Assembly (NCBI RefSeq): GCF_014205635.1
Contig: NZ_JACIIV010000005.1
Coordinates: 1-64,000 of the forward strand
From: Polymorphobacter multimanifer
GTDB lineage: Bacteria; Pseudomonadota; Alphaproteobacteria; Sphingomonadales; Sphingomonadaceae
Direction: 5' to 3'
DNA: 64,000 nucleotides
In this document: piece by piece, positions 8,135 to 18,427 of the stretch
How positions within the stretch are numbered: the stretch's first letter is position 1
Layout of the letters: every line of letters starts with the position of its first letter
Notes under the pieces: generated by a model
What the model was told of the DNA's origin: nothing
Databases searched by the model: none
What the model saw: only the letters and a program-made list of their open reading frames with translations
Position numbers and translations under genes: made by a program

Positions 8135-8572
8135 ATGGTAAAACGACAGTCGGACTGGCGGTTGGTGGACCGCCGGCGGTTTCTGGCCGCGCTCGCTGAA
8201 CATGGGGATGCGCTGAAGGGGGTGCAGGCGATCGGGCGGCCGTTGCAGGAGGCGTATGACCTGCGCGCTGCCGACAAGAGTTTTGCCGGCAGCTGGACGC
8301 GGGCCGTGGCGATGGCCTGGGACCGGGTGGAGGCGCGGCTGCTGGAACGGCTGCTCGCCACGCCCGAGCCCGATGCGAAGGATGCGCCGGGGCTGGCGCG
8401 CTTGCTCGACACCAAGTTGGTGATGGCCTTGGTGCAGCAGCGGCTGGAGCCGGTGCGGACGTCGGGCCGGGCGGCCAGGGTGCAGCGGCCTGCCAATGCC
8501 GAGGTGACCAGGCTCCGCGCCGAGATCCGCGCGCTGGGCGGATCGCTGCCCGACGACTGGCAGCCGGAATGA
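8135..8572 (+). CDS. GTA-associated small protein, probable small terminase subunit (gp1-like)
   Basis: A 145-residue, basic, helix-rich protein, with GGGAGG at 8125-8130 four bases before the ATG. It has no catalytic motif. Its C-terminal part (PANAEVTRLRAEIRALGG) looks like a short coiled coil. It sits immediately before the large terminase, where GTA clusters carry gp1/TerS, the subunit that binds DNA and presents it to the packaging motor. The TerS call rests mainly on position and size and is inference. Confidence 0.6.
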   Translation: MVKRQSDWRLVDRRRFLAALAEHGDALKGVQAIGRPLQEAYDLRAADKSFAGSWTRAVAMAWDRVEARLLERLLATPEPDAKDAPGLARLLDTKLVMALVQQRLEPVRTSGRAARVQRPANAEVTRLRAEIRALGGSLPDDWQPE

Positions 8573-8593
8573 CTCTTGTGATGCGAGGTGCCG

Positions 8594-9928
8594 ATGACGT
8601 CAGCGGGGGGCGATCTGCGGGCGCAGGCTTCGGTGCGGCAGCTGTTTTCGGCGCTTGGGGAAGCACAGCGGATCGAATTGCTCGACCGCTTCGGTGCGGA
8701 CGCGGTGATTTCGGCACTGAGCGGCACTGGCACGTTGCGGATGGCGCAGTTGCCGCCGCCGGGCGCGTGGACGATCTGGACGATTCTCGCCGGGCGCGGC
8801 TTCGGCAAGACGCGTGCCGGGGCGGAGTGGGTGCATGGGCTGGCGGCGGAGAGGCCACGGCGGTTCGCGTTGGTGGGGGCCAGCCTCGAAGCAGCGCGCA
8901 CGGTGATGGTGGAAGGCGAATCCGGCCTCTTGGCGCGGGCACCCGAGGGGCTGGGCGTCGAATTTTTGCCGAGCCTGCACCAGTTGAACTGGGAGAATGG
9001 CAGCCAGGCGCGGTTGTTTTCGGGGGGTGACCCCGATGGCCTGCGCGGCGGGCAGTTTGATTTTGCCTGGGGAGACGAGTTTGCGCACTGGCCGCGCGCC
9101 GAGGCGGCACTGACCAATCTGCGGCTGGCGACGCGGCTGGGCGAGCATCCGCAACTGCTGCTGACGACGACGCCGCTGCCGCTGCCCTGGCTGCGGGCCT
9201 TGCTGAGCGAGCCGGGGGTGGTGGTGACGCGGGGGCGGATGCGCGACAACCGCGCCAATTTGCCCGAGGGTTTTCTGGCGGCGCTGCAGGCGCGGTACGG
9301 CGGCACTGCGGTGGGGCGGCAGGAAATCGATGGCGAGATCATCGACTCGCTCGAAGGGGCGCTGTGGAGCCGGGGGCTGCTCGAACGCCAGCGGCGGCAG
9401 GTGGGTGACCTGCCACCGCTGGTGCGGGTGGTGGTGGCGGTCGATCCGCCGGCGGGCGGCGTGGCGGCGGTGTGCGGGATCGTGGTGGCGGGGCTCGATG
9501 GCGAGGGCCGCGGCTGGGTGCTGGAAGATGCCAGTCTGGCGGGTGCTCGGCCGGAGCTCTGGGCGCAGGCGGTGGTGGAGGCGGCCGAGCGGCATGGCGC
9601 CGACCGGGTGATTGCCGAGATCAACAATGGCGGCGACATGGTGACGTCGGTGCTGCGCGCGGTGGATGCGGTGCTGCCGATCCAGACGGTGCGGGCAGCG
9701 CGTGGCAAGGTGGCGCGGGCCGAGCCGGTGGCGAGCCTTTATGCGCAGGGGCGGGTGTTCCACATGGGTTCGTTTCCGGACCTTGAGGACCAGCTCTGCG
9801 GGCTGATGGCGAATGGTATTTACGGTGGTCCGGGCGCCTCGCCCGACCGGGCCGATGCACTGGTGTGGGCGCTGACGGCGCTGCTGCTGGGGCCGCGGCG
9901 CGAGAGGCCGGGCATCCGCTCGCTCTGA
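8594..9928 (+). CDS. GTA large terminase subunit (TerL, gp2-like)
   Basis: A packaging ATPase/nuclease of about 444 residues. The ATPase domain has Walker A GRGFGKT (67-73) and Walker B FAWGDE (157-162), followed by a coupling-type TTTPLPLPWL. The RNase H-like nuclease domain keeps acidic residues in VVAVDPPAG, IAEINNGGD and DRADALVWAL. The gene looks intact and under coding constraint. ATG 8594 has GAGG five bases upstream; GTG 8588 would add two residues. It is followed by a portal gene reduced to a stub, so as the locus stands this motor has no encoded portal or capsid to fill. Confidence 0.92.
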   Translation: MTSAGGDLRAQASVRQLFSALGEAQRIELLDRFGADAVISALSGTGTLRMAQLPPPGAWTIWTILAGRGFGKTRAGAEWVHGLAAERPRRFALVGASLEAARTVMVEGESGLLARAPEGLGVEFLPSLHQLNWENGSQARLFSGGDPDGLRGGQFDFAWGDEFAHWPRAEAALTNLRLATRLGEHPQLLLTTTPLPLPWLRALLSEPGVVVTRGRMRDNRANLPEGFLAALQARYGGTAVGRQEIDGEIIDSLEGALWSRGLLERQRRQVGDLPPLVRVVVAVDPPAGGVAAVCGIVVAGLDGEGRGWVLEDASLAGARPELWAQAVVEAAERHGADRVIAEINNGGDMVTSVLRAVDAVLPIQTVRAARGKVARAEPVASLYAQGRVFHMGSFPDLEDQLCGLMANGIYGGPGASPDRADALVWALTALLLGPRRERPGIRSL

Positions 9929-9943
9929 CAACAGGAGACAGGC

Positions 9944-10282
9944 ATGAATCTGGCGTTCTGGCGGACGAAGAGCCGCTTTGGCAGCCGCTCCGGGCAAACG
10001 CGTCTTGTGGGGGCGCCCAGCTGGGCGACCCCCTGGGCGGGGGGCGAGAGTTCGGCGAGCCCGCCGCGGAGCTATGAAGCGCAGGTGCGCGCGGCCTATC
10101 TGGCCAATCCGGTCGCGGCGCGCGCAGTGAAGATGGTAAGCGAGAGCGTGGGCGGGGCGCCGGTGGTGTCCGACCCCGGAGGGCACCCAGCGTTGCGGCT
10201 GCGGGTGCTTGGGCTCGCGGCTTCGGCCACTCGATCCGCGGCTTGCGTGGCTGGCGATGTGGCTGCAGGCGGGAGGCAGGTG
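9944..10282 (+). pseudogene. 5' remnant of GTA portal gene (gp3) joined to a scar
   Basis: The first 85 or so codons look like the start of a GTA portal protein (MNLAFWRTKS, then RSYEAQVRAAYLANPVAARA and VSESVGGAPVV), which is normally near 400 residues. After about 10200 portal similarity stops and the frame reads unrelated sequence up to the DUF3168 start. In a different frame the last 60 nt read PLDPRLAWLAMWLQAGGR and then a stop at 10282-10284, plausibly the C-terminus of a head-tail gene that once preceded DUF3168. The simplest reading is one deletion removing most of gp3 together with gp4 (protease), gp5 (capsid) and the connector genes. The frame stays open into DUF3168, so a fusion product is possible. 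Confidence 0.75.
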
Positions 10283-10669
10283 ATGGATGCAGGCCTGGCG
10301 ATGCAGCGGCTGATGGTGGCGGCGCTGGTGGGAATCGACGGCCTTTCGGGGGTGTTCGATGCGCCGCCCGCCGATGCCGCGCCGCCCTATCTGGTGATCG
10401 GCCCCGAGCTGATCATCGACTGGAGCACCAAGACCGAGACCGGCCATGAGCACCGCGTGCAGCTGCGGCTGTGGGATGAGGGGCGCTCGGCGGCGCGGAT
10501 CAAGCCGCTGCTGGGGCGGGTGGAGGCAGCGCTCGCGGGGCTTTCCGGCAGCGCCGATGGGCATCGGATAGTGTCGAGCCGGCTGGTGCGGACGCTGGTG
10601 CTGACCGGCGACGATGGCTGGACGCAGGGGCTGATCGAATTCCGGTTGCGGAGCGTCGCAACGGGCTGA
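10283..10669 (+). CDS. DUF3168 tail-completion protein (GTA gp8-like)
   Basis: A 128-residue DUF3168 protein, the tail terminator family of GTAs and related siphophages. Typical features are VFDAPPADAAPPYLVIGPE, DWSTKTETGHEHR and the end GWTQGLIEFRLRSVA. It has its own ribosome-binding site (GGGAGG from 10271) in front of the ATG at 10283, so it is translated independently even though the portal scar is in frame with it. It marks where the intact tail module resumes after the missing head genes. Confidence 0.85.
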   Translation: MDAGLAMQRLMVAALVGIDGLSGVFDAPPADAAPPYLVIGPELIIDWSTKTETGHEHRVQLRLWDEGRSAARIKPLLGRVEAALAGLSGSADGHRIVSSRLVRTLVLTGDDGWTQGLIEFRLRSVATG

Positions 10670-10687
10670 GCGAAGGGATCGGACGAC

Positions 10688-11095
10688 ATGGCGATGGAAA
10701 AGGGCAGTGCCTTTTTGCTGAAGGTGGGCAATGGCGCGGAGCCGCCGGGCTTTGCCACGGTGGCGGGGCTGCGGACGACGCAGCTGACGGTGAATGCCGA
10801 GACGGTGGTGGTGACCAACCAGGGCTCGGGCGGGTGGCGCGAGCTGCTGTCGGGGGCGGGGGTGCGCTCGGTGTCGTTGAGCGGGGCGGGGGTGTTCACC
10901 GGCTCGGGTGCGGAAGTGCGGGTGAAGGGCAATGCGCTCGCCGGGGTGATCGACGATTACCAGGTGGTTTTCGAGAGCGGCGAGACGGTGACGGGGCGGT
11001 TCCTGATCACCCGGCTCGACTATGCCGGCGATTACAATGGCGAGCGCACCTACACCATGGCGCTGGAAAGCTCCGGGCCAGTGGTGACCGCGTGA
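10688..11095 (+). CDS. phage major tail tube protein, TP901-1 type (GTA gp9-like)
   Basis: A 135-residue tail-tube subunit. Family features include an N-terminal KGSAFLLKVGN, the central NQGSGGWRELLSGAGVRS and the end YTMALESSGPVV. Tail tube proteins stack as rings to form the conduit of a non-contractile tail. Length is normal and there are no disruptions. The stop overlaps the GTG of the next gene (GTGA), typical of the tightly coupled tail operon. The ATG at 10694 is an equally possible start. Confidence 0.9.
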   Translation: MAMEKGSAFLLKVGNGAEPPGFATVAGLRTTQLTVNAETVVVTNQGSGGWRELLSGAGVRSVSLSGAGVFTGSGAEVRVKGNALAGVIDDYQVVFESGETVTGRFLITRLDYAGDYNGERTYTMALESSGPVVTA

Positions 11096-11397
11096 GGCCG
11101 GCGAATTCGGTGCGCGGCGAAGTGGCGCTGGCGCTTGGGGAACGGTCGCTGGTGCTGCGGCCGAGCTTCGAGGCGCTGGTGGCGGCCGAGGCTGAGCTGG
11201 GGCCGCTGTTTGCGCTGGTCGAGCGCGCGGCGGCGGGCGGGCTGACGCTGGCGGAGATGGCGGGGCTGTTCTGGCATTGCCTCGCTGAACGCGGCGAGGA
11301 CCGCGCGCATTTCGGCGAGGCGTTGGTGGCGGGTGGGCTGGCGAAGGCGACGCCGGCGCTGCGGGCGCTGCTCGAACAGATCCTTGCCGGGCGCTGA
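11092..11397 (+). CDS. gene transfer agent family protein (gp10-like)
   Basis: A 101-residue protein of the GTA gp10 family: RGEVALALGERSLVLRPSFEALVAAE, then ALVERAAAGGLTLAEMAGLFWHCL, and a C-terminal ALVAGGLAKATPALRALLEQIL. The start is GTG at 11092, overlapping the previous stop as GTGA; any upstream extension in this frame only reads across the tail-tube gene. In phage terms it occupies the first position of the tail-assembly-chaperone pair. Its stop overlaps the next ATG (TGATG). Confidence 0.85.
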   Translation: MRPANSVRGEVALALGERSLVLRPSFEALVAAEAELGPLFALVERAAAGGLTLAEMAGLFWHCLAERGEDRAHFGEALVAGGLAKATPALRALLEQILAGR

Positions 11398-11627
11398 TGG
11401 GCGTTACCTTTGCCGATGCAGCGCGGCGCGCTGCGACGTTTGCCGATGCAGCGCGGCGCGCTGCGGGGCTGGCAGCAGCGCAGCTCGGCTGGCGACCTGT
11501 GGAGTTCTGGGCGGCGACGCCGGCGGAGCTGGTGGTGGCGCTAGGGCTTGAGACCGACGACCCGGCGACAGCGCTGGATGGCGACCGGCTGGCGCGATTG
11601 ATGGAGGCATTTCCCGATGGACGGTGA
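11397..11627 (+). CDS. phage tail assembly chaperone (GTA type)
   Basis: A 76-residue protein with the short signature of GTA chaperones, GWRPVEFWAATPAELVVAL. Such proteins coat or recruit the tape measure before tube assembly. Near the N-terminus the ten-residue unit TFADAARRAA is present twice in tandem, encoded by a 30-bp near-identical DNA duplication; the unduplicated protein would be about 66 residues. The ATG overlaps the gp10 stop, and the 3' end overlaps the tape measure by 11 nt. Confidence 0.8.
   Translation: MGVTFADAARRAATFADAARRAAGLAAAQLGWRPVEFWAATPAELVVALGLETDDPATALDGDRLARLMEAFPDGR
11406..11465 (+). repeat. 30-bp tandem duplication inside the chaperone gene
   Basis: Two adjacent 30-bp copies, 11406-11435 and 11436-11465, match at 29 of 30 positions (third base C versus G). 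Because 30 is a multiple of three the reading frame is kept and ten residues are duplicated. The near identity implies a recent slippage or unequal recombination event. Confidence 0.9.
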
Positions 11628-12180
11628 TCTCGAAGACCTGGTGATCCGCGTGCGCGCCGACACCAGCGGCTTTCTGGCCGGGGTGGCGGGGATGCGGCGC
11701 GAGCTCGATGGCCCGCTGGCTTCGGGCGTGGAACGGGCAGGGGGCTCGATCGAGCGGTCGCTTTCGCGCGCGGTGGCGAGCGGGCGATTGGGGTTCGAGG
11801 ATTTGCGGCGGGTGGCGCTGCGATCTTTGAGCGATATTGCCGAGGGGGCGCTGCGATCCGACTTTGCCGGGCTGCTGGGCGGCGGCGGTGGCGCGGGACT
11901 GCTGGGGCAGCTCGGCAGCCTGCTGGGAGGCGCGCCGGGGCGGGCGACGGGGGGACCGGTGACGGCGGGGCGGGCCTACAGGGTGGGCGAACGTGGACCG
12001 GAGCTGTTCGTGCCGCAGGCGGCGGGGCGGATCGAGGCGGGTGCGCCTGCTGCAAGAGGCCCGGTGCAGGTGACGGTGAACGTGGCGGCTCCGCCCGATG
12101 CCGGGCCGGCGGTGATGGCGCAGACGGGAGCGCAGGTGGCGCGCGCGGTGCGCCGGGCGCTGATGAGGGCCGAGGCATGA
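11617..12180 (+). CDS. short tail tape measure protein (GTA gp11-like)
   Basis: A 187-residue protein that would set tail length. It begins DLVIRVRADTSGFLAGV, has a helical middle and a Gly-rich stretch (LLGGGGGAGLLGQLGSLLGG), and ends with the common phage sequence GGPVTAGRAYRVGERGPELF. GTA tape measures are short because the tail is short, so the length fits. A GGAGG at 11603-11607 precedes the ATG and lies inside the chaperone gene. Its stop overlaps the next gene as ATGA. Confidence 0.85.
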   Translation: MDGDLEDLVIRVRADTSGFLAGVAGMRRELDGPLASGVERAGGSIERSLSRAVASGRLGFEDLRRVALRSLSDIAEGALRSDFAGLLGGGGGAGLLGQLGSLLGGAPGRATGGPVTAGRAYRVGERGPELFVPQAAGRIEAGAPAARGPVQVTVNVAAPPDAGPAVMAQTGAQVARAVRRALMRAEA

Positions 12181-14513
12181 TGCAGCATTGGCTGGCGGGC
12201 AAGGCCGACCAGGTGCGGCAGCAATGGGTGAAGCGCTTCGACCCGCGCTTCTGGACGGTGGATTTTCCGCGCCCGATGATGGCTGCGGTGATGACCGCGG
12301 GAAGCGACGGCCTGGTGGTGGAGGCGGAGTTTTTGCGGCGCGCCGACCTGGCGGGGCTGATCTGGGAGGCGGAGGACCGGTGGAGCCATCCGCTGCTTGC
12401 GCTGGCGACATCGCGGGATTTCAGGGGGCTGCGGCTGGCGTTTCATTGGCGGCAGACGGGTGGTGCGCTTCCGCTCGATGCCGTGAACGGTCCGGTGCTG
12501 ACGATCGAGGGGCGTGATGCGGCCGGGGCGGCGCGCAGCTGGTATGTGCGGCTGTGGAACTATGCGCAGGGCAGCGGCAACGATGCGGCGATTGCGCTCG
12601 ATTTCGATGCGCTCGATGCCGGCTTCAACCTGGCCGATGGCGCCGAGCGGGTTTGGACGGGGGACATCGACCGGATGTTCATCTCGCTGGTCGCCGAGGG
12701 TTTCGATGGCAGCGATGCGCCATTGCCGGCACCGGTGGCGGCGCGGCTGGAGCTGAGCGGGATTCGCGCTGAAGGGCCGGGCTCGATGGTGCGGATGGGC
12801 GATGCCTTTGTGCCGCCGCATGGCCTGCGGATGTGCGGTGGCTATGACGACAGCTACAACCAGACGCCCGAGCGGCTGATCGAGGCGATGCTGGCGCTCG
12901 GCTACCGCGGTACGCTGGTGCATTATGTCGGGATGAGCCATTTTCCCGCGTTGCGCTGGGATGAAGCGGCGGGGGCGTATCTGGCGCAGCCGGATGTGCC
13001 GTTGTGCGCGCCGGCGCGGGCCTGGCACGCGGATTTTCTGGCGCGCGCGGTGGCGTTGGGGTTCTCGACGATCCTGTCGCTGTCGTTCGAACTGCTTGAC
13101 CAGAACTGCCCGGCGGATTGGGCGCAGCGCAATGCCGGGGGCGGGCGCGGGCTGACGGGCTATGTGCCGCCTTCGGCCTTGCTTTCACCGGCACATCCGG
13201 TGGCGATGGCGTGGCTGCAGGCGGTGGCGATGGATTTCGTGGCGCTCGCACAGGCTGCAGGGGATAGGCCGCGATTCCAGATCGGCGAGCCCTGGTGGTG
13301 GGTGGGGCCGGACCTGGCGCCCTGCCTTTATGATGCGGCGACGCTGGCGCTGCACGAAGCCGAGACGGGGCTGGTGGCGCCGCGGATCGACAATGTGCGG
13401 GCGGTGACGCTGGCGGAAGAGCGCGAATGGCTCGACTGGTGCGGGGCGCTGCTCGGACGGGCGACGCTGGCGCTGCGCGATGCGGTGCGCGCGGTGGCAG
13501 CGGATGCCGAGGTGTCGCTGCTCTTCTATGCGCCGCAGGTGCTCGATGCAGCGGCGCCCGAGCTGGTGCGGGCGAATGTGCCGCTCGGCTGGGCGTGGCC
13601 GGCGTTCGATGTGCTGCAGCTCGAGGATTATGAGTTCGTGACCCGGCAGGATGCGGCGGGGCAGCGGAGGGCGCGGGCGGTGGTGAGCGAGCGGCTCGGT
13701 TATCCGCTGGCGGCGCAGCATTACTTTGCGGGCTTTGCAACGCGCGACGCCGATTGGCTGCCGATCCTGGAAGCCGCCGATGCGGCGATGGCGCGTGGTG
13801 TGGCGGAGACGTTCGTCTGGGCCTGGCCGCAGGTGGCGCGGGACGGGTTCGTGGCGTTTGCGAGCGGTGAGGAGGATGATTCGATGCCGGCGTTTCATGA
13901 TGTGCTGTTTCCGCTGCAGCTTGGCTATGGAGCGCTCGGCGGCCCCAGCTTTTCGACGCAGGTGGTGGTCACGGGATCGGGGCATGAGCAGCGCAACAGC
14001 CAATGGGCGGATGCGCGGCAGAGCTATGATGCCGGGTTGGGGGTGCGCTCCGAGGCCGACCTGGCGCTGCTGCTCGGGTTCTTTCGGGCGCGGCGGGGGC
14101 AGGCGCATGGCTTTCGGTTCAGCGATCCGCTCGACAATGGCTCGGCCGCGCATGGGGCGGCGCTGACGCCGTTCGACCAGCCGCAGGGCATGGGCGATGG
14201 TGTGCAGACGCATTTCCGGTTGGTGAAGACCTATGGCGACGAGCCCGAGGCGCAGGTGCGGCGGATCAGCCGGCCGCTCGTGGAGTCGGTGCGGGTGGCG
14301 GTCGATGGCAGCGAGGTGACGCAGGGGTGGAACGTCTCGGCCGATGGCTGGCTCGATTTCGATGCCGCACCGGTGGCGGGAGCGGAGGTGCGCGCGGGCT
14401 ATCGCTTCGATGTGCCGGTGCGCTTTGCCGCCGACCGGATCGATGTGTCGATTGCAGGATGGCGGGCGGGCGAGCTGCCTTCGGTGCCGCTTGTCGAGAT
14501 CCGGGAGGATTGA
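12177..14513 (+). CDS. fusion of TIM-barrel-like N-terminal region with DUF2460 tail protein (gp12-like)
   Basis: A 778-residue protein. The last 210 residues or so (from about 570, FPLQLGYGALGGPSFSTQV, then GLGVRSEADLALLLGFFRAR) are DUF2460, the distal-tail protein gp12 of GTAs, which alone is about 210 residues. The first 570 residues are an extra region that looks like a beta-sandwich followed by a glycoside-hydrolase-like barrel: GYRGTLVHYVGMSHFP, FSTILSLSFELL, FQIGEPWWW with Glu371, and DVLQLEDYEF with Glu483/Asp484/Glu486. Glu371 and the second acidic cluster occupy strand ends as a retaining hydrolase pair would. Enzymatic activity is inference; a purely structural (tail sheath-like) role is equally possible. 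Confidence 0.75.
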   Translation: MMQHWLAGKADQVRQQWVKRFDPRFWTVDFPRPMMAAVMTAGSDGLVVEAEFLRRADLAGLIWEAEDRWSHPLLALATSRDFRGLRLAFHWRQTGGALPLDAVNGPVLTIEGRDAAGAARSWYVRLWNYAQGSGNDAAIALDFDALDAGFNLADGAERVWTGDIDRMFISLVAEGFDGSDAPLPAPVAARLELSGIRAEGPGSMVRMGDAFVPPHGLRMCGGYDDSYNQTPERLIEAMLALGYRGTLVHYVGMSHFPALRWDEAAGAYLAQPDVPLCAPARAWHADFLARAVALGFSTILSLSFELLDQNCPADWAQRNAGGGRGLTGYVPPSALLSPAHPVAMAWLQAVAMDFVALAQAAGDRPRFQIGEPWWWVGPDLAPCLYDAATLALHEAETGLVAPRIDNVRAVTLAEEREWLDWCGALLGRATLALRDAVRAVAADAEVSLLFYAPQVLDAAAPELVRANVPLGWAWPAFDVLQLEDYEFVTRQDAAGQRRARAVVSERLGYPLAAQHYFAGFATRDADWLPILEAADAAMARGVAETFVWAWPQVARDGFVAFASGEEDDSMPAFHDVLFPLQLGYGALGGPSFSTQVVVTGSGHEQRNSQWADARQSYDAGLGVRSEADLALLLGFFRARRGQAHGFRFSDPLDNGSAAHGAALTPFDQPQGMGDGVQTHFRLVKTYGDEPEAQVRRISRPLVESVRVAVDGSEVTQGWNVSADGWLDFDAAPVAGAEVRAGYRFDVPVRFAADRIDVSIAGWRAGELPSVPLVEIRED

Positions 14514-14516
14514 GCG

Positions 14517-15350
14517 ATGGATTCCGAACGGCTGGCAGGCGAGGTGACGACGCTGGCGCTGTGCTGGCGGATCGTGCGCGCCGATGGCGTGGCGCTGGGG
14601 TTCACCAGCCACGACGAGCCGCTGATGGTGGCGGGGCTGCGCCATGCCAGTGCGCCGGGGATGAGCCCTTCGGCGGTTGTGCAGGGGGACACCACCGAGG
14701 TCGATACACTCGATGTCGCGGGGGCGCTGTCGGCGACGGCGATCACCGCCGATGATCTGCTGGCGGGGCGGTATGACGGCGCTGCGGTGTCGTTGTTTCT
14801 CGTTGACTGGACGGCGCCGGATGCGGGGCGTCATGTGCTGGCGCGGGGGCATCTGGGTGCGGTCGAGGCCGGGGACGGGCCGGACGCGGGCTTTGTGGCG
14901 ACGCTGCTGGGGCCGACGGCGGCACTGCAGGCGACGCTGGTCGAACGCTATTCGTCGGAATGCCGCGCCACCTTGGGGGATGCGCGGTGCCGGGTGGATA
15001 TGCGCGGGCGGCGCCATCTGGCGACGGCGATGGTGACGGCGAGCGACGGGACGATGCTGGCGCTGGCGGGGGTGGAGGCGGGCGTGCCGCTGGCCGCGCT
15101 TGTGGAAGGGCGATTGCGGGTTCTCGATGGTGGTGCTGCCGGACTGGAGCGGCGGATCATGGGGGTTGTGGGGGACGAGCTGGTGCTGGCCGAGCCGCTG
15201 GCGATCGACCCCGGCGCGCGGCTGTGGCTGTGGGAGGGATGCGACCGCCGGTTTGCCACCTGTTCGGGCCGCTTCGGCAATGGACGCTTGTTTCGGGGTG
15301 AGCCGCATGTGCCGGGCAATGACATGCTGATGCAGGTCGCGGGGCTGTGA
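14517..15350 (+). CDS. DUF2163 tail hub protein (GTA gp13-like)
   Basis: A 277-residue protein of the DUF2163/BR0599 family that forms the hub at the end of GTA tails. The N-terminal half has LALCWRIVRADGVALGFTSH and the C-terminal half YSSECRATLGDARCRVDM and EGCDRRFATCSGRFGNG, ending FRGEPHVPGND. Four cysteines, 149, 158, 242 and 249, are placed as two pairs and could bind a metal or iron-sulfur cluster as described for the Rhodobacter capsulatus GTA hub. Coding sequence is intact; it lies 3 nt after gp12 and overlaps the peptidase gene by 4 nt (GTGA). Confidence 0.88.
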   Translation: MDSERLAGEVTTLALCWRIVRADGVALGFTSHDEPLMVAGLRHASAPGMSPSAVVQGDTTEVDTLDVAGALSATAITADDLLAGRYDGAAVSLFLVDWTAPDAGRHVLARGHLGAVEAGDGPDAGFVATLLGPTAALQATLVERYSSECRATLGDARCRVDMRGRRHLATAMVTASDGTMLALAGVEAGVPLAALVEGRLRVLDGGAAGLERRIMGVVGDELVLAEPLAIDPGARLWLWEGCDRRFATCSGRFGNGRLFRGEPHVPGNDMLMQVAGL

Positions 15351-15751
15351 CGCTGGCAGCGGATGCGGTGGTGGCCGCGGCGCGCCTCTGCCTGGGCACC
15401 GCCTTCCGGCCGCAGGGACGGGTGCCGGGGCTCGGCCTCGACTGCGTCGGTGTGGTTCTGGCTGCGGCGGCGGCGCTGGGGCTTCGGCCCGAGGTGCCGG
15501 CGTATCGGTTGGGGGGCGACCATGCGGGGCTGGCTGAAACGGTGATTGCGGCGGCGGGCGCTCGGCGAATCCGGACGGCACATCCTGGCGACATCGTGCT
15601 GATGGCGCCGAGGGTGCGCTTGCGGCACCTTGGCATTCTTGTGGCGGGCGGGCTGGTGCATGCGCATGCCGGGGTGGGGCGGGTGATCGAGGGGCCGGTC
15701 GATCCGGCATGGCAATGGCTGGGCGCCTGGCGCCTGCCGGGAGTGGATTGA
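15347..15751 (+). CDS. NlpC/P60-family peptidase (GTA gp14-like)
   Basis: A 134-residue cysteine peptidase expected to cut peptidoglycan peptide cross-bridges during tail assembly or cell entry. The nucleophile is Cys33 in GLGLDCVGVVL; His94 in RLRHLGIL and the following HAH (105-107) supply the rest of the catalytic set. The start is GTG at 15347, overlapping the hub-protein stop. Preserved active-site residues show this part of the cluster is still under selection or decayed only recently. Confidence 0.88.
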   Translation: MTLAADAVVAAARLCLGTAFRPQGRVPGLGLDCVGVVLAAAAALGLRPEVPAYRLGGDHAGLAETVIAAAGARRIRTAHPGDIVLMAPRVRLRHLGILVAGGLVHAHAGVGRVIEGPVDPAWQWLGAWRLPGVD

Positions 15752-15754
15752 GCA

Positions 15755-17914
15755 ATGGCGACCCTGGTTCTTGGCACGGTGGGCCGCGCCATCGGCGGAC
15801 CGATCGGCGGCATCGTCGGATCGCTCGCCGGCAGCGTGATCGACCGCGGGTTGTTCGGCGGTGCCCGCGGCAGGGCCGAGGTGCCGCTGGTGCAGAGTGC
15901 GGCCTATGGCGAGCCGGTCCCGCGTGTTTTCGGGCGCATGCGGGTAGCTGGCAATCTGATCTGGAGCAGCGAGATTGCCGAGCAGGCGAGTGCTGGGGGC
16001 AAGGGGGGCGGCTACAGCTATTCGGCATCGTTTGCCGTGGGGCTGTCGGCGCGCCGGCTGACGGGCGTGGGGCGCATCTGGGCGGATGGCCGTTTGCTGC
16101 GCGACGGTGAGGGGCGGTGGTTGTTGCCGGTGGTGATGCGCTTGCACCTCGGCGATGAAGACCAGCCGATCGATGTGCTGATGGCAGCGGCGGAGGGCGA
16201 TTGCCCGGCCTATGCGGGGCTTGCCTATGCCGTGTTCGAGGACCTGCCGCTTGCCGACTTTGGCAACCGAATTCCGGGTCTCAACTTCGAGGTGATTGCC
16301 GACACCGGTTTGCTGCTCGATCTCGGCGGGGCTGCGCGGGAACTTTGCGAAGGCCGAATATCCGTGGAAGGCGACTTTGCCGGGGTTGACGGGATGGTGG
16401 CTGCACAGCCGGGCAGAATTGCCGATACGCTCGACCTGCTGCTCGATTCGACCGACGCCGCGCTGGTGGATGACCAGGGCCGGCTGGTGATGCGCATTCC
16501 GGCTGGCACCCCCGAGATCTTGCGGCTGGCCGACTGTCGCTCGTCCGATGCGGCGGGGCGCTCGGCGCCGACACGCCGGCGACTGGCCGCTTCCACGGCG
16601 GTGGACAGCATCGAGATCGGCTTTGTCGACCCTGAGCGGGACTTTCAGCCGGGGTTGCAACGCGTACAGCGCAGCGCTGGTCACCGGATCGAAACGCTGT
16701 CTCTCCCAGTGGCGATGACGCCGATGGCGGCGAAGGCTTTGGCTGCTTCGCGGCTCGCGCAGCGCCATGCGGCGCGGCTTACCCGGTCGGTTCGGCTGCC
16801 CTGGCGCCACCTTGGCATCATGCCGGGCGCGGTGGTGCGAACCGAGGATTCGGACGCCGTCTGGCGTGTGCGCGAGCGCCTTTTCGAGGGCTTTCTGCTG
16901 ACGCTGTCGCTTGAGCGGATGGCGGCGCCAGTGGGCGTTGCGGTTGCGAGCGATGGAGGACGCGCACCGGCCGGGCGCGCGGAGCCGATGGGCCCGACCG
17001 TGCTGCATCTCCTCGATCTGCCGTCGCTGGGGCCAGTTGCCGATATGGCGCCCCGGCTGCTCGTGGCAGGCGCGGGTGCCGGTCCGGGGTGGCGCCGCGC
17101 GCCGGTGCTGGTCAGCGACAATGGTGGACTGGACTATGCGGCTGCGGGCACGATCGCGCAGGCTTCCATGATGGGTATTGCCATCAACGCGCTGCCAGCA
17201 GGCCATGCCACGATCTGGAATCGCAGCACATGCCTCGAGGTCGAGCTGATTGCCGATGGCATGTGGCTGCAGGGGCTGCCCGAGGCGGCAGTTCTGCAGG
17301 GTGGCAATCTGGCGCTGGTGGGTGATGAGCTGGTGCAATTTGCACAGGCCGAGGCGATTGCGCCGCGCCGTTTCCGGTTGCGGGGGCTGCTCCGTGGTCG
17401 TCGCGGGACCGAGGCGGCGATTGGGGGGCACCGCGCAGGTGAGCGGTTCATTATGCTGGAGAGCGCAGCCTTGTTGCCGCTCGATCATGCGCTCGATCGC
17501 ATCGGGCAGTCGCTGCTGGTTCGCCCGGCTGGTGGCGATGATGCCGATGCGGCTGCGATGGCGGCCGTGGTGGGCGGGCGAGGGCTTCGCCCGCTTGCAC
17601 CGGTTCATCTGCGGGCCCGGCCCATGGGCGATGGCTGGCAGCTGACATGGGTCCGCCGCAGCCGGGCAGGTTTTGGCTGGGCGGACTTTGTCGATGTGCC
17701 GCTGGCCGAAGCCTTTGAGGCGTGGACAATCGAGGTGTGGAGTGGTGACAGGCTGTGCCGGACATCGATGAGCGAGACCTCCGGCTTCGACTATGGCGCC
17801 GCCGAGCAGATTGCCGATGGCTGCGGTGAGACGCTGATCTTCCGCGTGGCACAGCTGAGCGAGGCTGTCGGGCCGGGTGAATTTGCCGAACTGGCCGTCA
17901 CCCGCCGGCCTTGA
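15755..17914 (+). CDS. GTA host-specificity/tail tip protein (gp15-like, short form)
   Basis: A 719-residue tail-tip protein. The N-terminus (LGTVGRAIGGPIGGIVGSLAG, then YGEPVPRVFGRMRVAGNLIW) and later blocks (RLRGLLRGRRGTEAAIGGHR, PVHLRARPMGDGWQLTWVRR) match the gp15 family. Rhodobacter gp15 is much longer, around 1,300 residues, and carries an internal TIM-barrel domain that is not apparent here. A barrel-like domain is instead found on the gp12 fusion of this locus. The gene is uninterrupted. It probably forms the fibre or baseplate that contacts recipient cells. Confidence 0.85.
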   Translation: MATLVLGTVGRAIGGPIGGIVGSLAGSVIDRGLFGGARGRAEVPLVQSAAYGEPVPRVFGRMRVAGNLIWSSEIAEQASAGGKGGGYSYSASFAVGLSARRLTGVGRIWADGRLLRDGEGRWLLPVVMRLHLGDEDQPIDVLMAAAEGDCPAYAGLAYAVFEDLPLADFGNRIPGLNFEVIADTGLLLDLGGAARELCEGRISVEGDFAGVDGMVAAQPGRIADTLDLLLDSTDAALVDDQGRLVMRIPAGTPEILRLADCRSSDAAGRSAPTRRRLAASTAVDSIEIGFVDPERDFQPGLQRVQRSAGHRIETLSLPVAMTPMAAKALAASRLAQRHAARLTRSVRLPWRHLGIMPGAVVRTEDSDAVWRVRERLFEGFLLTLSLERMAAPVGVAVASDGGRAPAGRAEPMGPTVLHLLDLPSLGPVADMAPRLLVAGAGAGPGWRRAPVLVSDNGGLDYAAAGTIAQASMMGIAINALPAGHATIWNRSTCLEVELIADGMWLQGLPEAAVLQGGNLALVGDELVQFAQAEAIAPRRFRLRGLLRGRRGTEAAIGGHRAGERFIMLESAALLPLDHALDRIGQSLLVRPAGGDDADAAAMAAVVGGRGLRPLAPVHLRARPMGDGWQLTWVRRSRAGFGWADFVDVPLAEAFEAWTIEVWSGDRLCRTSMSETSGFDYGAAEQIADGCGETLIFRVAQLSEAVGPGEFAELAVTRRP

Positions 17915-17938
17915 TGATCATCGGGAAGGGGCAAGAGC

Positions 17939-18427
17939 ATGCATGAGACGATCCGGCACCGGCTGCCGCTGATGGCGGCCGCACAGGCGCAGAAGGAGAT
18001 CACCCACAATGAGGCGTTGATGCTGGTCGACCGGCTGCTGCACCCGGTCGTTGAATCGCGCGCGCTGGCAGTGCCACCGGCCATGGCATCACCTGGCGCG
18101 GCCTGGATTGTGGCGGCTGGCGCAGCGGACGCCTGGGCGGGTGCCGAAGGGCGACTTGCCGTCCATGATGGCGAAGCGTGGCACTTTGCGGAGCCGTTCG
18201 CGGGCCTTGCAACATGGGTGCGCGATGAACACTGCTTCGTCGCATGGGACGATGGCTGGAGCGACACATGGCCCGTCGGCGGACTTTCGATCCGCGGTCG
18301 GCGGGTGCTTGACGCGGCCCCGGCAGCCATGGCGCCTGCCGTCGGCGGGACTGTTGTGGATGCAGAATTGCGGGCCGTGACAGCAACGCTGATCGAGGCT
18401 CTGCGCGCGCAGGGAATCGTTACCTAG
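17939..18427 (+). CDS. DUF2793 protein at the end of the GTA cluster
   Basis: A 162-residue DUF2793 protein, a family found after gp15 in GTA loci and in some prophage tails. Typical features are LPLMAAAQAQKEITHNEALM at the N-terminus, AWHFAEPFAGL in the middle and a C-terminal helix VDAELRAVTATLIEALRAQG. A strong ribosome-binding site (AAGGGG near 17925) precedes the ATG. It may be a small tail-fibre or head-spike component; the function is not known. Nothing GTA-like follows it. Confidence 0.82.
   Translation: MHETIRHRLPLMAAAQAQKEITHNEALMLVDRLLHPVVESRALAVPPAMASPGAAWIVAAGAADAWAGAEGRLAVHDGEAWHFAEPFAGLATWVRDEHCFVAWDDGWSDTWPVGGLSIRGRRVLDAAPAAMAPAVGGTVVDAELRAVTATLIEALRAQGIVT

What the first reader, a model, noticed from the sequence alone, without database searches (positions are those of the whole stretch)
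9944..10669. GTA cluster has lost its head module: portal stub joined directly to the tail genes
An intact terminase is followed by only about 85 codons of portal protein, then a short scar, then DUF3168 with its own ribosome-binding site. No prohead protease, major capsid, connector or rest of the portal is present, although all downstream tail genes are open and keep their active-site residues. In known GTAs gp3-gp7 occupy this interval. In a second frame 10226-10284 reads as the possible C-terminus of the gene once before DUF3168. Either this is a recent deletion in a dying GTA or a tail-only particle (tailocin-like device) has been kept.
Basis: partly seen in the sequence, partly recalled or inferred. 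Interest (0 to 1): 0.8.

Follow-up and report, generated by a model that had tools for sequence, protein, structure and literature searches.

The report
Gene transfer agent missing its head
A bacterium's domesticated phage-like DNA-transfer machine has lost its head genes in one clean deletion, and relatives carry many different deletions in the same machine, so this looks like one of many copies being lost rather than a new headless device.

Summary
In this Sandarakinorhabdus-group sphingomonad the GTA cluster keeps TerS, TerL and the tail genes. Between TerL and gp9 only portal codons 1-86, a scar with about 25 last codons of the gp7-position gene, and DUF3168 remain; portal start and DUF3168 are in frame (241 aa). 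In 12 of 12 fetched congeners the interval is 6.6-8.2 kb longer and holds portal, protease, capsid, an ~890-aa gene and further head genes. No second GTA head was found in the genome; the only other portal and capsid belong to a separate prophage. Tail genes show no GTA-specific loss of constraint, so the deletion is young or the tail is still used. Clusters that cannot build a particle also keep leftover genes open, so open tail genes are no evidence for a tailocin. Of 20 inspected family clusters with deletions no two share both endpoints; a lost head with an open tail recurs in G191 and G230, not clearly above chance. Five other species of the genus (one 78% complete) gave no full TerL. Best reading: recent deletion in a GTA being lost; a tail-only particle is possible but unsupported.

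The parts
8135..8572 (+). small terminase gene, open
   Evidence: PHROG terminase small subunit E 1.8e-5; homologue in the same place in 11 of 12 fetched congeners, the twelfth stretch begins inside TerL
8588..9928 (+). large terminase gene (gp2), complete
   Evidence: Pfam PF03237 and PF17289; 63-73% identity to 12 fetched congeners
9944..10201 (+). portal stub, codons 1-86 of about 375
   Evidence: tblastn and alignment with congener portals
9944..10669 (+). 241-aa open frame: portal start + scar + DUF3168, in frame by the deletion
10202..10283 (+). scar; from about 10205 in a second frame the C-terminal end of the gp7-position gene, stop TGA 10281-10283
   Evidence: alignment with congeners, translation
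10283..10669 (+). DUF3168 / tail completion protein, complete, own start with GGGAGG upstream
   Evidence: PF11367 E 3e-18
10688..11095 (+). gp9 major tail protein, open
   Evidence: PF06199, 80-87% identity to congeners
11092..11397 (+). gp10, open
   Evidence: PF11836
11397..11627 (+). gp10.1-like gene (76 aa) with a private in-frame 30-bp tandem duplication (copies matched from 11409 and 11439)
   Evidence: the name gp10.1 is recalled, by position
11617..12180 (+). gp11, short tape-measure-like protein, open
   Evidence: PHROG 30701 and weaker tape-measure families
12177..14513 (+). gp12, tail sheath-like domains + DUF2460, open
   Evidence: PF23844, PF23845, PF09343
14517..15350 (+). gp13, baseplate hub-like, open
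   Evidence: PF09931, PF09356
15347..15751 (+). gp14, NlpC/P60-like, open
   Evidence: PF00877 E 0.005, below cut-off; position and congener homology
15755..17914 (+). gp15, tail tip protein, open
   Evidence: PF13550, PF23666
17939..18427 (+). gene after gp15 found at the end of the congener clusters (called gp16 here)

Best explanation
A once complete RcGTA-type cluster, inherited within the genus, has recently suffered an internal deletion of about 6.6-8.2 kb from portal codon ~86 to the 3' end of the gp7-position gene. Capsid, protease and most of the portal are gone, so no DNA can be packaged and no transfer can occur. The remaining TerS, TerL and tail genes are leftovers that have not had time to decay. 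The cell is a GTA non-producer, one step on the road to the loss seen in other species of the genus. Shown: the missing stretch, its presence in the fetched congeners, no head found elsewhere in the genome, openness of the rest, the recurrence of such deletions. Inferred: that it was one event, that it is recent, that it abolishes transfer, and that nothing keeps the tail.
For: 12 of 12 fetched congeners have portal, protease, capsid, the ~890-aa gene and the gp7-position gene between portal start and DUF3168, over 6.9-8.6 kb against 339 bases here. 0 of 80 named loci show the loss (74 have the capsid gene, 6 run off a contig). The 7.4-kb missing stretch of congener G011 finds only two ~70-bp matches in the own genome, and the only PF04860 and PF05065 matches are in a separate prophage on contig C18. 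In the genus, G004, G006, G009 and G013 (78% complete) give no TerL and G007 only a 58-residue scrap; G003 has gp12 and gp15 in several frames and no gp6 match. In the family, 20 inspected clusters (the window's included) have deletions and no two share both endpoints. G000 tail proteins are not accelerated: distance to the outer clade 1.08 versus 1.00-1.14 in six congeners.
Against: The ten remaining genes TerS, TerL, DUF3168 and gp9-gp15, and gp10.1, are open, and pairwise dN/dS of the tail is 0.30-0.43, which a tail still in use would also give. The deletion spares just DUF3168 through gp15, the set a free tail would need. Two other species, G191 and G230, also lack a usable head and keep an open tail. 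No conspecific strain was available to date the event, and no reads to prove it.
Confidence: 0.85

Rival explanations
1. Tail-only particle: the head was lost and the tail kept as a free tail (tailocin-like killer, or an injector or binder of sister cells).
For: DUF3168 and gp9-gp15 complete and open; no clear excess of changes at conserved tail positions, 38 of 794 against 17-33 of 588-789 in six congeners, while G000 also leads in rpoB, 13 of 1141 against 0-9; two similar cases, G191 and G230.
Against: TerS and TerL kept although useless to a tail; clusters without capsid, tube or tape measure keep open leftovers as well (G027, G083), so openness does not discriminate; 3 of 20 head-only deletions against 6.6% expected for random endpoints, P = 0.14, or 0.39 if G230 is not counted; a private 30-bp duplication in gp10.1; the deletion is not shared with any of 12 fetched congeners.
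Confidence: 0.08
2. Assembly error: the head genes exist and the contig was wrongly joined.
For: Draft genome of 72 contigs; reads could not be inspected.
Against: The head genes were found in no other contig, nor any capsid or portal but the prophage's; the junction lies inside a 168-kb contig, the scar holds the expected gp7 remnant in the right place, and no direct repeat of 12 bases or more spans the junction within 9700-10900. The lost sequence itself cannot be searched for repeats.
Confidence: 0.05
3. Chimeric particle: the GTA tail joins the head of the resident C18 prophage.
For: A prophage with its own portal, protease-like gene and capsid is present.
Against: By my reading of its translations that prophage has its own terminase, tape measure, tail and endolysin-like genes; nothing suggests that its connector fits the GTA tail; of the other head-only cases, G230 has a single capsid match, of the strength of its GTA remnant.
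Confidence: 0.02

Closest known systems
RcGTA-type head-tail clusters of Alphaproteobacteria (Sphingomonadales branch)
   Same: Gene order TerS-TerL-portal-(head)-DUF3168-gp9-gp10-gp11-gp12-gp13-gp14-gp15, as in the fetched congeners
   Different: Portal reduced to 86 codons; protease, capsid, connector and most of the gp7-position gene missing
Incomplete or pseudogenised GTA clusters and 'cheater' lineages (Kogay and Zhaxybayeva 2024, PMC10883770, passages read; PMC9765227, 2022, passages read)
   Same: Loss of part of a GTA cluster; the first names pseudogenisation, complete loss and deletion bias in several lineages, the second calls incomplete clusters abundant
   Different: The passages I saw give no catalogue of deletion endpoints and no headless, tail-complete case; I saw neither whole text nor supplements
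F-type tailocins (flexible phage-tail bacteriocins; recalled, no call)
   Same: Siphophage tail genes without head genes
   Different: Terminase genes kept, no bactericidal role known, private deletion rather than a conserved locus

Membership tests
RcGTA-type gene transfer agent | Homologous head-tail cluster in conserved order | tested here: met
   TerS, TerL, portal start, DUF3168, gp9-gp15 collinear with congeners; the RcGTA order itself is recalled
RcGTA-type gene transfer agent | Head genes present (portal, prohead protease, major capsid) | tested here: not met
   Not found in the cluster or elsewhere in the genome except in a separate prophage
RcGTA-type gene transfer agent | Packages random host DNA and transfers it | not testable with these tools
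   Needs culture work; not expected without a capsid
Decaying GTA cluster | Private lesion relative to intact relatives, no replacement elsewhere | tested here: met
Decaying GTA cluster | Relaxed selection on the rest | tested here: inconclusive
   No GTA-specific acceleration; no close sister genome to date the deletion
Tailocin (F-type) | Complete tail genes without head genes | tested here: met
Tailocin (F-type) | Packaging genes lost, locus conserved headless across strains or species | tested here: not met
   TerS and TerL kept; headless state not shared by any of 12 fetched congeners
Tailocin (F-type) | Free tails that kill relatives | not testable with these tools
   needs microscopy and killing assays

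The most novel reading that the evidence does not exclude
A GTA that has turned into a free tail: head lost, DUF3168-gp15 kept by selection and released to kill or contact sister cells. The headless, tail-complete clusters in G191 and G230, with unlike lesions, would then be parallel cases of the same change.
Probability: 0.07. Interest if true: 0.8.

Novelty: new member of a known kind. Interest (0 to 1): 0.33.

Why it matters
A clean, probably young deletion shows how GTA production may be lost, which bears on the open question of how a lethal shared trait survives non-producers. The wider result is more useful than the single case: within one family 20 inspected clusters carry deletions with different endpoints, leaving head-side, tail-side and end-only remnants. 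Judging a lineage by one marker gene, for example capsid presence as in PMC9836097 (passage), can therefore miss which lineages still could make particles.

Tried and rejected
Head genes elsewhere in the genome: not found. Prophage on C18 as a displaced GTA head: rejected, its terminase and protease-like gene differ in length and it has its own tail. Headless state as a family trait: rejected (0 of 80 loci; 12 of 12 congeners have the head). Exact breakpoint and microhomology: not resolvable, since the best DNA matches of relatives in the terminase are only 68-77% identical. Relaxed-selection tests: protein distances, unique changes at otherwise invariant columns, unique N/S counts in trios and pairwise dN/dS gave no GTA-specific signal. 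Against 'no change', the G000 tail N/S (0.81) is above the other six (0.53-0.69), but its rpoB N/S is high too (0.318; five others 0.08-0.39). The rpoB codon row of G015 was misaligned and is to be ignored. Sister tests on other deleted clusters: G027 against G112, tail 0.49 v 0.35 (p 0.15), early genes 0.59 v 0.27 (p 0.025); G194 against G145 0.59 v 0.34 (p 0.016); G060 against G187 0.70 v 0.82 (p 0.40); G191 against G230 0.74 v 0.46 (p 0.0045). Trios of G191 and G230 against G070/G141 have an unsuitable topology (p down to 1.7e-21) and are not used. Rows dropped from the table: G042 (L127) and G180 (L165), because a contig end cuts the cluster. Three more genomes with partial capsid matches, G057, G059 and G151, were not fetched. 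The 20 clusters were picked because a marker was missing, so they are not a random sample; the random-endpoint figure models that only roughly. Literature: listings; passages in PMC6821227, PMC9836097, PMC9765227, PMC10883770 (abstract of the last); Viswanathan 2017 (PMC5381585) is not held, so a report of such deletions there cannot be excluded.

Full report
What is there. The window is the first 64 kb of a 168-kb contig (C5) of a 3.92-Mb genome in 72 contigs, rated 100% complete. Named relatives found by the tail protein gp9 include Polymorphobacter glacialis, Sandarakinorhabdus cyanobacteriorum, S. oryzae and sphingomonad MAGs, so this is a Sandarakinorhabdus-group sphingomonad (inference). 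From 8135 to 18427 it has a GTA cluster: TerS, TerL, portal start, DUF3168, gp9, gp10, gp10.1, gp11, gp12 (tail sheath-like domains plus DUF2460), gp13, gp14, gp15 and one further gene found in the congener clusters. The gp numbers follow RcGTA usage as recalled.

The gap. Portal homology stops after codon 86 (10201). From about 10205 the sequence matches, in a second frame, the C-terminal end of the gene that precedes DUF3168 in congeners; its stop (10281-10283) overlaps the DUF3168 start (10283), which keeps GGGAGG upstream. The portal start is in frame with DUF3168, so a 241-aa fusion could be made from the portal's start besides DUF3168 from its own. This needs no selection: one deletion in three would be in frame. 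No direct repeat of 12 bases or more spans the junction within 9700-10900.

What is missing. In 12 of 12 fetched congeners (L025-L036) the stretch from portal start to DUF3168 start is 6946-8581 bases against 339 here, and holds portal, S78-type protease, capsid, an open frame of 884-944 codons, a 122-aa gene and the gp7-position gene; a connector (gp6) matches in 11 of 12, not in L027, where the Gp77-like gene is also cut (families of L026). A 7.4-kb piece of this stretch from G011 finds only two matches of about 70 bases in the own genome. The only Pfam portal and capsid of the genome lie on contig C18 in a separate prophage with integrase-like gene, 606-aa terminase, portal, protease-like gene, capsid, tape-measure-like and endolysin-like genes (apart from portal and capsid these names are my reading of the translations, not a family search).

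How widespread. Of 80 named loci with gp9, 74 have the capsid gene upstream and 6 (L042, L047, L048, L074, L079, L085) end at a contig edge before it; none shows this loss (the 80 best of 105). In the genus (24 genomes) a DNA search finds cluster matches in 19 (21 have any match, but G004 and G009 only short ones of about 20-40 bases). TerL by protein search: none in G004, G006, G009 and G013 (G013 is 78% complete), a 58-residue scrap in G007; G004 and G007 also lack the gp12 domain (the other three were not in its listed rows). G003, whose contig has the length of a Polymorphobacter glacialis contig, has gp12 and gp15 split over frames and no gp6 match. So loss or decay of GTA recurs in this genus.

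Family survey. A joined TerL-capsid-gp13 query hit 102 of 119 genomes of at least 95% completeness (its match list was cut off). In a draw of 219, the gp12 TIM-barrel domain was in 143 and a capsid query matched in 153, prophage capsids included. Comparing the two lists by eye, ten gp12-bearing genomes had no capsid match of GTA strength beside it: G000, G027, G037, G093, G116, G169, G180, G191, G194, G230; G057, G059 and G151 have partial capsid matches and were not followed up. I fetched the nine others of the ten, some genomes with a capsid but no gp12, and some with TerL alone, and mapped 20 clusters with deletions, the window's included; G042 and G180 were dropped for contig ends. No two share both endpoints: for example TerL, portal and protease then gp12 (G027); TerL and portal then gp12 (G169) or late gp9 (G194); the first quarter or so of the TerL query then gp10 (G116); TerL then gp15 (G066, G135); only gp12 and the start of gp13 lost (G060); TerL to capsid kept and the tail lost (G161, where the connector is cut; G203, where the capsid lacks its last residues). 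Head unusable with DUF3168-gp15 nearly full and in one open stretch each: G000, G191 (portal 1-56, protease 4-57, no capsid; two lesions) and G230 (capsid from residue 231 only; no TerL match in the 2.8 kb fetched upstream). G093 has lost everything before capsid residue 307 and has gp13 in two frames.

Is the tail kept for use? Three observations speak against needing that. First, leftovers remain open where nothing can be built: G083 keeps TerL, portal, gp14 and gp15 open, and G027 keeps gp12-gp15 open, both without capsid, tube or tape measure. In all, 8 of 20 clusters show a stop or a frame change in a leftover gene besides the deletion (G113, G066, G099, G116, G169, G194, G093, G037); the window is among the 12 that do not. 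Second, under random endpoints on an intact cluster 6.6% of detectable deletions would fall within the head; 3 of 20 is no clear excess (P 0.14; for 2 of 20, should G230 not count, 0.39). Third, TerS and TerL are kept here although a tail needs neither, and gp10.1 has a private in-frame 30-bp duplication that a pattern scan of the loci then held found only in this genome.

Selection. On protein trees the tail of G000 lies 1.08 from the outer clade against 1.00-1.14 for six congeners; TerL 1.26 against 1.01-1.15; rpoB 0.325 against 0.28-0.325. Changes at otherwise invariant columns: tail 38 of 794 (congeners 17-33 of 588-789), TerL 6 of 173 (2-9 of 164-176), rpoB 13 of 1141 (0-9 of 1128-1137). 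Pairwise dN/dS of the tail is 0.30-0.43 with G000 and 0.24-0.38 without, at dS of 0.67-1.15, where saturation is a worry. TerL, at the high end, is the only hint of faster change, and it is weak. So most of the G000 branch passed under purifying selection; the deletion is either recent or harmless to the tail's use. No conspecific genome was at hand to tell these apart. N/S tests on other deleted clusters were mixed, and a control pair of intact genomes differed more strongly than any test pair of sound topology, so I draw nothing from them.

Comparison with the literature. Kogay and Zhaxybayeva 2024 (PMC10883770, passages) state that pseudogenisation and complete loss of GTAs occur in several alphaproteobacterial lineages, may mark cheater lineages, and invoke deletion bias. 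PMC9765227 (2022, passages) calls incomplete clusters abundant and warns that some genes may be replaced by analogues; here no capsid, portal or protease stands in the interval at all. I saw no paper on GTA-derived free tails in the listings; these listings show titles and openings of abstracts only. Viswanathan 2017 on the Sphingomonadales 'ancient prophage' is not held.

Verdict. Observation confirmed; ordinary in kind. The most likely story is a young deletion in a GTA that is being lost. A free-tail device remains possible at low probability, and the genus of G191 and G230 is the better place to test it.

Noticed in passing
L026:6620-9289 and the same place in L025, L027-L036 (between capsid and connector genes): All 12 fetched GTA clusters of this genus carry an 884-944-aa open frame there. 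The two tested (L026, L029) have no PHROG match, and the L026 one no Pfam match. A 122-aa gene and a Gp77-like fibre-adaptor protein follow, so possibly a GTA head or neck fibre.
   Followed up: partly
L023:11776-12480 (own prophage, contig C18) and L029:6496-6951: A 234-aa prophage protein and a 151-aa GTA-cluster protein, both soon after the capsid gene, look alike at their starts by eye; prophage and GTA of one genus may share a post-capsid module.
   Followed up: no
window 11397-11627: gp10.1-like gene with a 30-bp in-frame tandem duplication found by pattern scan in no other locus then held, save the own genome's copy.
   Followed up: yes
L166 (G191) and L168 (G230): Two species of one other genus lack a usable GTA head through different lesions and keep DUF3168-gp15 open.
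   Followed up: partly
L172 (G161) and L174 (G203): The mirror case: TerL to capsid kept, tail genes deleted down to the last gene of the cluster.
   Followed up: partly
   Followed up: partly
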